Source of the DNA: Gammaproteobacteria bacterium | GTDB lineage: Bacteria > Pseudomonadota > Gammaproteobacteria > Chromatiales > Chromatiaceae | Length of the DNA stretch: 5,338 bases | Direction: 5' to 3' | Assembly: GCA_019136395.1 (NCBI GenBank) | Contig: JAGVUH010000218.1 | Coordinates: forward strand, 1 to 5,338 | Part shown: piece by piece, positions 3,028 to 3,153 of the stretch | How positions within the stretch are numbered: position 1 is the first letter of the stretch | Layout: the number at the start of each line of letters is the position of its first letter | Notes under the pieces: generated by a model | What the model was told of the DNA's origin: nothing | The model's input: the letters and a program-made list of their open reading frames with translations, nothing else | Database searches by the model: none | Position numbers and translations under genes: made by a program

Positions 3028-3153
3028 GAGGGCCGTGCAGCAAGATACGGCGACACGGCGCCGCGGGTCGATCTGGTGTTCGGCTCCAACTCCATCCCGC
3101 GCGCCCATGCCGAGGTCCATGCCCAGGATGACAACCAGGAGAAGTTCGTCCAT
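3028..3153 (+). pseudogene. katG: Decayed 3' fragment of a catalase-peroxidase gene
   Basis: In the frame starting GAG at 3028, the spacer after feoB encodes a recognisable piece of the KatG C-terminus. Residues from 3064 read RVDLVFGSNSIPRAHAEVHA, continuing QDDNQEKFVH to 3153. Family KatG proteins end with RVDLVFGSNSxLRAxAEVYAxxDxxEKFVxDFVAAW and a DRFDL tail. Two family-typical residues are altered (Leu to Pro, Tyr to His). The EGR at 3028-3036 may align with the family EGRDR segment if about three residues were lost. The rest of KatG, including the haem and Met-Tyr-Trp regions and the final 17 or so residues, is missing, so this is not a functional enzyme. The fragment starts within two bases of the feoB stop and ends at the ATG of the next gene, whose ribosome-binding site lies in the codons for QEKF. 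This is my recognition from memory of the family; no alignment was run. Confidence 0.85.

What the first reader, a model, noticed from the sequence alone, without database searches (positions are those of the whole stretch)
3028..3153. Remnant of the katG 3' end lies inside the feo operon and forms the leader of the next gene
Seen: the feoB-to-next-gene spacer encodes RVDLVFGSNS, AEVHA and DDNQEKFV in one frame, matching the conserved C-terminus of catalase-peroxidases in order and spacing, but with the rest of the protein gone. Known: KatG removes hydrogen peroxide, the reagent that makes Fe(II) toxic. Inference: a katG gene once lay in this locus, or a recombination joined the feoB end to a katG end. 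The surviving 3' scrap now supplies the ribosome-binding site (AGGAGAAG, in the QEKF codons) of the 65-residue gene. The next gene's start, MSNRDL, might even derive from the katG terminal codons, which is only a weak resemblance. Such exaptation of a dead gene's end as a translation signal is unusual.
Basis: partly seen in the sequence, partly recalled or inferred. Interest (0 to 1): 0.72.

Follow-up and report, generated by a model that had tools for sequence, protein, structure and literature searches.

The report
Catalase gene scrap inside iron-uptake operon
Between two genes of a bacterial iron-uptake operon lies the stump of a gene for a hydrogen-peroxide-destroying enzyme, left when DNA that a close relative still carries there was deleted, and the stump now holds the likely ribosome landing site of the next gene.

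Summary
Confirmed and extended. Window 3055-3151 is a 97-bp piece of katG: 33 residues match solved KatGs (25 identical, E 4.7e-10) and the DNA is 91.8% identical to a relative's intact katG. That relative (L001/G001, MAG "Candidatus Thiosymbion sp. R3-B40") carries on one contig, collinearly, feoA-feoB, 12.1 kb of other genes, intact katG, osmC and rhodanese genes, the 65-codon gene, ~1 kb, feoC and a porin start. The window keeps this order but lacks everything between feoB and the 65-codon gene except the scrap. FeoB groups the window with G002, whose feoB is followed by the start of the same extra block, so the loss lies on the window's branch. The right break is within about four bases of the 65-codon gene's ATG: its native leader is gone, and katG-derived AGGAGAAG is the likely Shine-Dalgarno. 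The scrap's four private changes all alter the protein at KatG-conserved residues. FeoB's tail might also be katG-derived (weakly supported). It is a gene fossil of a known kind; use of the ribosome site is inferred, and the junction was seen in one sequence only.

The parts
404..649 (+). feoA
   Evidence: Pfam FeoA 7.6e-22; 88.3% DNA identity to G001 over 401-631
654..3026 (+). feoB; homologous to G001 up to about 2999; the last codons and the stop (3000-3026) differ from five close relatives
   Evidence: Pfam FeoB_N, Gate, FeoB_C; 89.2% DNA identity to G001 over 641-2999; FeoB tails
3000..3054 (+). left junction zone: end of the FeoB frame, its stop codon and first part of the spacer; possibly diverged katG DNA with indels
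   Evidence: anchored alignment to DNA just upstream in G001 katG: 13 of 2000 shuffles as good for 3000-3054, 105 of 2000 for 3027-3054 alone, 854 of 2000 for 3000-3026 alone; 16 of 2000 in a repeat, but unremarkable with six other katGs
3019..3204 (+). 61-codon frame through the scrap, starting at an ATG that overlaps the feoB stop and ending inside the 65-codon gene; thought not to be a gene
   Evidence: 56 database hits are KatG C-terminal pieces without the window's flanks
3055..3151 (+). katG remnant, 97 bp from the KatG C-terminal domain
   Evidence: 91.8% DNA identity to intact katG of G001; PDB KatG match E 4.7e-10
3137..3144 (+). AGGAGAAG, Shine-Dalgarno-like sequence inside katG codons (Gln-Glu-Lys); likely ribosome-binding site of the 65-codon gene
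   Evidence: sequence; duplex energy -7.4 kcal/mol; same letters in the katG stretches of L117, L172, L173 and L174; G001's own katG reads GGGAGAAG there
3151..3154 (+). right deletion junction: G001 katG homology ends at 3151, homology to the G001 65-codon gene starts at 3151; some other katGs match through 3154
3152..3349 (+). 65-codon gene of unknown function (s65), overlapping feoC by ATGA
   Evidence: 87% identical protein in G001; 5 clusters, 28 members, representatives all 65 aa; no Pfam or NCBIfam match
3346..3561 (+). feoC
   Evidence: Pfam FeoC 3.1e-20; 79.2% DNA identity to G001
3628..4875 (+). LbtU-family porin following the operon; the start of a related porin also follows feoC in G001
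   Evidence: NCBIfam NF033652 2.7e-70

Best explanation
The spacer is a deletion scar. In the common ancestor of the window's organism and its relatives, extra DNA lay between feoB and feoC: a block beginning with a glycine/glutamine-rich gene cluster behind feoB, and a katG upstream of the 65-codon gene (s65). On the window's branch most of this was lost, most simply in two deletions (from the feoB end into the 3' part of katG; from katG's EKF codons to the s65 ATG). A 97-bp katG piece survived and is dead as a catalase. Because the right break removed s65's own leader and the promoter-like sequence before it, katG-derived AGGAGAAG is now s65's likely ribosome-binding site. The overlapping pair s65-feoC has been brought back behind feoAB, presumably into one transcript. 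Shown: homology, collinearity, the right breakpoint to within about four bases, the branch on which the block behind feoB was lost, protein-altering drift. Inferred: number and order of events, presence of the full G001 block in the ancestor, ribosome-site use, co-transcription.
For: KatG match E 4.7e-10. Collinear G001 contig with intact katG and s65 in the same order and strand: feoA/feoB 88-89%, katG 91.8%, s65 87.6%, feoC 79.2%. G001 katG homology ends and s65 homology starts at base 3151. In 55 genomes (G001 and its relatives) FeoC has 30 places in 29 genomes; 27 places have a FeoB match ending within 111 nt upstream; exceptions are G001 (split), G003 (contig ends inside feoC) and G025 (weak hit): adjacency is the usual state. 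FeoB tree puts window with G002 against G001 plus three outgroups, support 0.994; derived-shared sites (window+G002: window+G001: G001+G002) 50:9:19, 45:13:20 and 48:14:18 with the three outgroups. G002's feoB is followed by the G001-like cluster, 79% identity over 2.2 kb plus 80% over 0.7 kb. Scrap versus G001 katG: six codons changed, all changing the residue; feoB 149 silent and 70 changing (Fisher p 0.0013; codon positions p 0.020). Four private changes (T or S)>P, L>P, Y>H, Y>H.
Against: No genome is held for the window, so an intact katG elsewhere and a second copy of the junction could not be checked; no read support was seen, and the window's source is unknown. No other held sequence shows the junction: G002's contig ends 3.2 kb after feoB, and no KatG, s65 or FeoC was found in G002; G003's contig ends inside feoC. 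So that katG and s65 lay behind feoB rests on G001 plus the scrap itself. G001's katG is not uniquely closest: G206 has 92% over 95 bp, G144 93% over 86 bp; only synteny singles out G001. G001's own katG also differs from other katGs by amino-acid changes, and 96 bases are a small sample. The left junction is unresolved within 2999-3055. The Shine-Dalgarno pairing is not unusual for this sequence.
Confidence: 0.85

Rival explanations
1. Assembly chimera: the window joins feoB, a katG read and s65 from different strains.
For: Source unknown, no reads seen; katG 3' ends of similar identity are common in the order (62 of 210 genomes have a match to the query, nearly all to its katG part).
Against: The pieces are joined in the same order and strand as in an independent contig; the piece carries four changes at residues conserved in the katGs compared, unlike a working katG; reading frames on both sides are intact.
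Confidence: 0.06
2. The spacer encodes a small functional peptide, translated by re-initiation at the ATG (3019) that overlaps the feoB stop codon.
For: An open frame of 61 codons runs from ATG 3019 to 3204; the ATG overlaps the feoB stop.
Against: Weak ribosome-site pairing before it (-5.3 kcal/mol, close to the median of random 25-mers, -5.0); the 56 database hits to the frame are KatG C-terminal pieces, none carrying the window's flanks; private changes hit conserved KatG residues. A new, non-KatG use of the peptide is not excluded.
Confidence: 0.04
3. A katG fragment was inserted between feoB and s65 from elsewhere, without a resident katG.
For: katGs of equal identity exist elsewhere in the order.
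Against: It needs a chance insertion of the very gene that G001 has at this place, in the same strand and order, abutting the s65 start.
Confidence: 0.04

Closest known systems
Decayed pseudogene remnants in bacterial intergenic spacers (for example Buchnera, PMC3164680; 12 of 21 passages seen)
   Same: A spacer consisting of a recognisable, unconstrained piece of a former gene; spacers there also hold Shine-Dalgarno sequences.
   Different: Here the intact counterpart is in place in a close relative, and the break lies at the next start codon, so the remnant itself forms the leader. The passages seen do not describe a remnant acting as a ribosome site.
Operon formation by deletion of intervening genes (Price et al. 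2006, recalled; paper not held)
   Same: Genes of one pathway brought together by loss of what lay between.
   Different: Here it looks like re-closure of an operon: feoB and feoC are adjacent in most relatives examined.
KatG catalase-peroxidases (TIGR00198)
   Same: Sequence of a segment of the C-terminal domain.
   Different: Only about 32 of some 720 codons are securely recognisable; the domain with the active site (recalled: N-terminal) is absent.

Membership tests
katG pseudogene remnant | Significant sequence homology to KatG | tested here: met
   E 4.7e-10; 91.8% DNA identity over 97 bp
katG pseudogene remnant | Intact gene at the same position in a relative | tested here: met
   G001 contig, same strand and order; one relative only
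katG pseudogene remnant | Loss of coding constraint | tested here: met
   0 silent and 6 amino-acid-changing codons against G001; four private changes; only 96 bases, so a small sample
KatG catalase-peroxidase (functional) | Full-length two-domain protein | tested here: not met
   Only a 33-residue C-terminal piece is recognisable
Ribosome-binding site of s65 | Shine-Dalgarno-like sequence at usable distance, native leader absent | tested here: met
   AGGAGAAG 3137-3144; leader replaced at 3151; pairing not unusual against random 25-mers
Ribosome-binding site of s65 | Used for initiation in the cell | not testable with these tools
   needs a reporter or ribosome profiling
feoABC operon | feoA, feoB and feoC in a row on one strand | tested here: met
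   Pfam, with s65 between feoB and feoC; 27 of 30 FeoC places in relatives have FeoB directly upstream
feoABC operon | One transcript | not testable with these tools
   needs RNA data; no promoter-like site in window 2900-3360 by consensus scan

The most novel reading that the evidence does not exclude
The dead katG supplies both borders of the re-closed operon: the last codons and new stop codon of FeoB (the window's tail after Pro-Thr differs from the PTRL(A/V)(T/A)S(Q/A/V)A tails of five relatives, and an 8-base word TGCCGACC is shared by feoB's end and katG in G001 at that place) and the ribosome-binding site of the next gene, so that one scrap ends FeoB and starts s65, which overlaps feoC by ATGA.
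Probability: 0.25. Interest if true: 0.5.

Novelty: new member of a known kind. Interest (0 to 1): 0.42.

Why it matters
Operons are thought to split and re-form by insertions and deletions, but the scars of single events are seldom legible. Here a relative keeps the former arrangement, the scar is short enough to read base by base, and it shows how a deletion can give a gene a new translation signal from the codons of a lost gene. It also places a peroxide-removing gene at the feo locus in the ancestor. It makes a simple, testable case of a leader taken from a dead gene.

Tried and rejected
Own-genome search for an intact katG: no genome held. s65 relatives in viral contigs: none. s65 in 55 genomes: only G001. 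210 genomes of the order searched with window 2985-3360: 62 have a match; only G001 matches s65 at length; nearly all other rows are katG 3' ends, a few are short matches elsewhere; no row from another genome runs from the katG part more than 3 bases past 3151. The first comparison of the scrap with other katGs used a wrong offset for those rows and was redone; its G001 comparison was right. The genomic control was contaminated by katG itself (pool held the G001 contig; 28 of 3000 as good for 3000-3054), so I rely on the shuffles. The rival reading of 3000-3026 as ordinary FeoB tail is not excluded: against G001's feoB end 189 of 3000 random segments score as well (27 bases; 111 of 3000 with 30 bases), against G002's 1393 and 1892 of 3000. 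In one search L175 gave no motif match and was dropped. In one search I used 12 katGs (9 of the 19 distinct rows, G001 among them, plus L172-L174). Among the ten rows left out, the residue at codon 18 is Leu, Ile or Val, never His; Leu 15 and Tyr 22 hold in all 19 rows. The 8-base word at the left junction is shared by chance in 18% of such comparisons. Promoter scan: none in window 2900-3360, one terminator-like site inside s65 (mean 0.2 in shuffles); in G001 one promoter-like site upstream of s65 (mean 0.3) and one terminator-like site after katG (mean 1.7): weak. Papers: six full-text searches gave listings, empty, in which I saw no report of this arrangement by title and abstract start; that covers only the held library.

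Full report
Observation. The spacer between feoB (654-3026) and the next gene (ATG 3152) reads, in one frame, TAPRVDLVFGSNSIPRAHAEVHAQDDNQEKFVH. Against solved structures this matches KatG catalase-peroxidases over 33 residues at E 4.7e-10; all 60 rows shown of 67 are catalase-peroxidases by name. The DNA of 3055-3151 matches an intact katG at 91.8% over 97 gap-free bases. This is not chance.

Setting. feoA, feoB and feoC are confirmed by Pfam. The gene between feoB and feoC (s65, 65 codons) has no Pfam or NCBIfam family, but five protein clusters with 28 members, each represented by a 65-residue protein, exist in the large protein collection. It overlaps feoC by ATGA. After feoC comes an LbtU-family porin. 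No whole genome is held for the window.

The relative that explains it. FeoB finds two very close genomes: L001 (G001, MAG named Candidatus Thiosymbion sp. R3-B40, 91% identity) and L002 (G002, 94%, contig ends inside feoB). KatG and s65 of G001 lie on contig C257, which has the length of L001's contig, 41,865 bases, and carries feoAB too. Read in the feo direction it holds feoA (21275), feoB (21688-24057), a heavy-metal-domain protein, glycine/glutamine-rich proteins, a P-type ATPase, a sensor kinase, a GGDEF protein, intact katG (36173-38422), osmC and rhodanese genes on the other strand, s65 (39854-40051), about 1 kb, feoC (41027-41242) and the start of a porin. From feoB to katG are 12.1 kb, from katG to s65 1.4 kb. 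The window matches this contig in the same order: feoA/feoB 88-89%, katG piece 91.8%, s65 87.6%, feoC 79.2%.

Breakpoints. On the right, homology to G001's katG ends and homology to its s65 begins at base 3151; a few other katGs match on to 3154, so the crossover is known to within about four bases. The s65 start codon is at 3152. The native leader of s65, as seen in G001, is absent. On the left, BLAST homology to feoB ends at 2999. FeoB tails of G001 and G002 and of P0064, P0065 and P0066 read PTRL(A/V)(T/A)S(Q/A/V)A; the window reads PTGPVATVHA. The stretch 3000-3054 aligns to G001's katG just upstream with several indels: 13 of 2000 shuffles score as well, 16 of 2000 in a repeat. Taken apart, 3027-3054 gives 105 and 3000-3026 gives 854 of 2000, and with six other katGs the whole stretch is unremarkable (249 to 1540 of 2000). 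So the left border lies somewhere in 2999-3055. That katG also wrote FeoB's last codons and stop is a lead, not a result.

Which state is ancestral. In 55 genomes (G001 and its relatives), FeoC matches 30 places in 29 genomes. In 27 of the 30 a FeoB match ends within 111 nt upstream. The exceptions are G001, G003 (contig ends in feoC) and G025 (weak hit). So feoB-feoC adjacency is usual and G001's split is probably derived. A tree of feoB with three outgroups groups the window with G002 (support 0.994). G002's feoB is followed by the same glycine/glutamine-rich cluster as G001's, as far as its contig goes, 3.2 kb. This cluster was thus most simply behind feoB in the common ancestor, and the window's branch lost it. 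G002 showed no KatG, s65 or FeoC, so katG's place in the ancestor rests on G001 and on the scrap.

State of the scrap. Against G001 katG, changes fall 3, 3 and 2 on codon positions 1, 2 and 3; all six changed codons change the residue. feoB has 149 silent and 70 changing codons (Fisher p 0.0013). Four changes are private to the window among 12 katGs compared: Thr or Ser to Pro, Leu to Pro and twice Tyr to His. The piece appears to have drifted without constraint on its protein, which also speaks against an assembly mix-up with a working katG. The sample is only 96 bases.

Does it work as a leader? AGGAGAAG (3137-3144) pairs with the 16S tail at -7.4 kcal/mol, against -5.6 for the leader in G001; but 20% of 400 random 25-mers of the window do as well. 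The letters were probably already in katG codons: the intact katG stretches of L117, L172, L173 and L174 carry them, while G001's reads GGGAGAAG. It is the best candidate and the native leader is gone, but use is inferred. No promoter-like site lies in 2900-3360 of the window, while one lies upstream of s65 in G001; co-transcription with feoAB is plausible and untested. An ATG at 3019, overlapping the feoB stop, opens a 61-codon frame through the scrap; I think it is not a gene, because its upstream pairing is ordinary and no hit carries its flanks, but this rests on one sequence.

katG near feo elsewhere. Of 22 genomes with KatG matches, only G001 and G007 have katG near feoB by coordinates. 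In G030 and G026 they share a contig but lie far apart; in the rest they are on different contigs, where distance is unknown, or no FeoB was found. In G007 katG lies about 1 kb upstream of feoA. G007's contig length equals that of a Sedimenticola thiotaurini FeoB record, so it is probably that species (inference).

Verdict. It is a legible deletion scar in an operon, of a known general kind, with a clear account of the former state. Passages of PMC3164680 on pseudogene remnants in spacers were seen; the listings of six full-text searches showed no report of this arrangement.

Noticed in passing
C257 of G001 (L083), between s65 (ends 40051 in reversed coordinates) and feoC (41027): G001 carries about 975 bases between s65 and feoC that the window lacks (window: ATGA overlap); direction of change not determined.
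   Followed up: partly
G007 C1:1549577-1555614 (L145): katG lies about 1 kb upstream of feoA-feoB-feoC on the same strand in a probable Sedimenticola thiotaurini; a second link between katG and feo.
   Followed up: partly
G027 C54 and C274, G013 C453 and C455, G043 C11: Other relatives hold partial katG matches with in-frame stops: katG decay may recur in this group.
   Followed up: no
window 3628-4875: The porin behind the feo genes matches the LbtU siderophore porin family.
   Followed up: no
L001 12414-18162; G002 C332 (L168): Behind feoB in G001, and at least its start in G002: HMA-domain protein, glycine/glutamine/tyrosine-rich repeat proteins with small hydrophobic partners, P-type ATPase; function unclear.
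   Followed up: no
window 4841-4987: Three head-to-tail copies of a 49-base unit (100, 88 and 71% identity) start inside the porin's last codons and run past its stop.
   Followed up: partly
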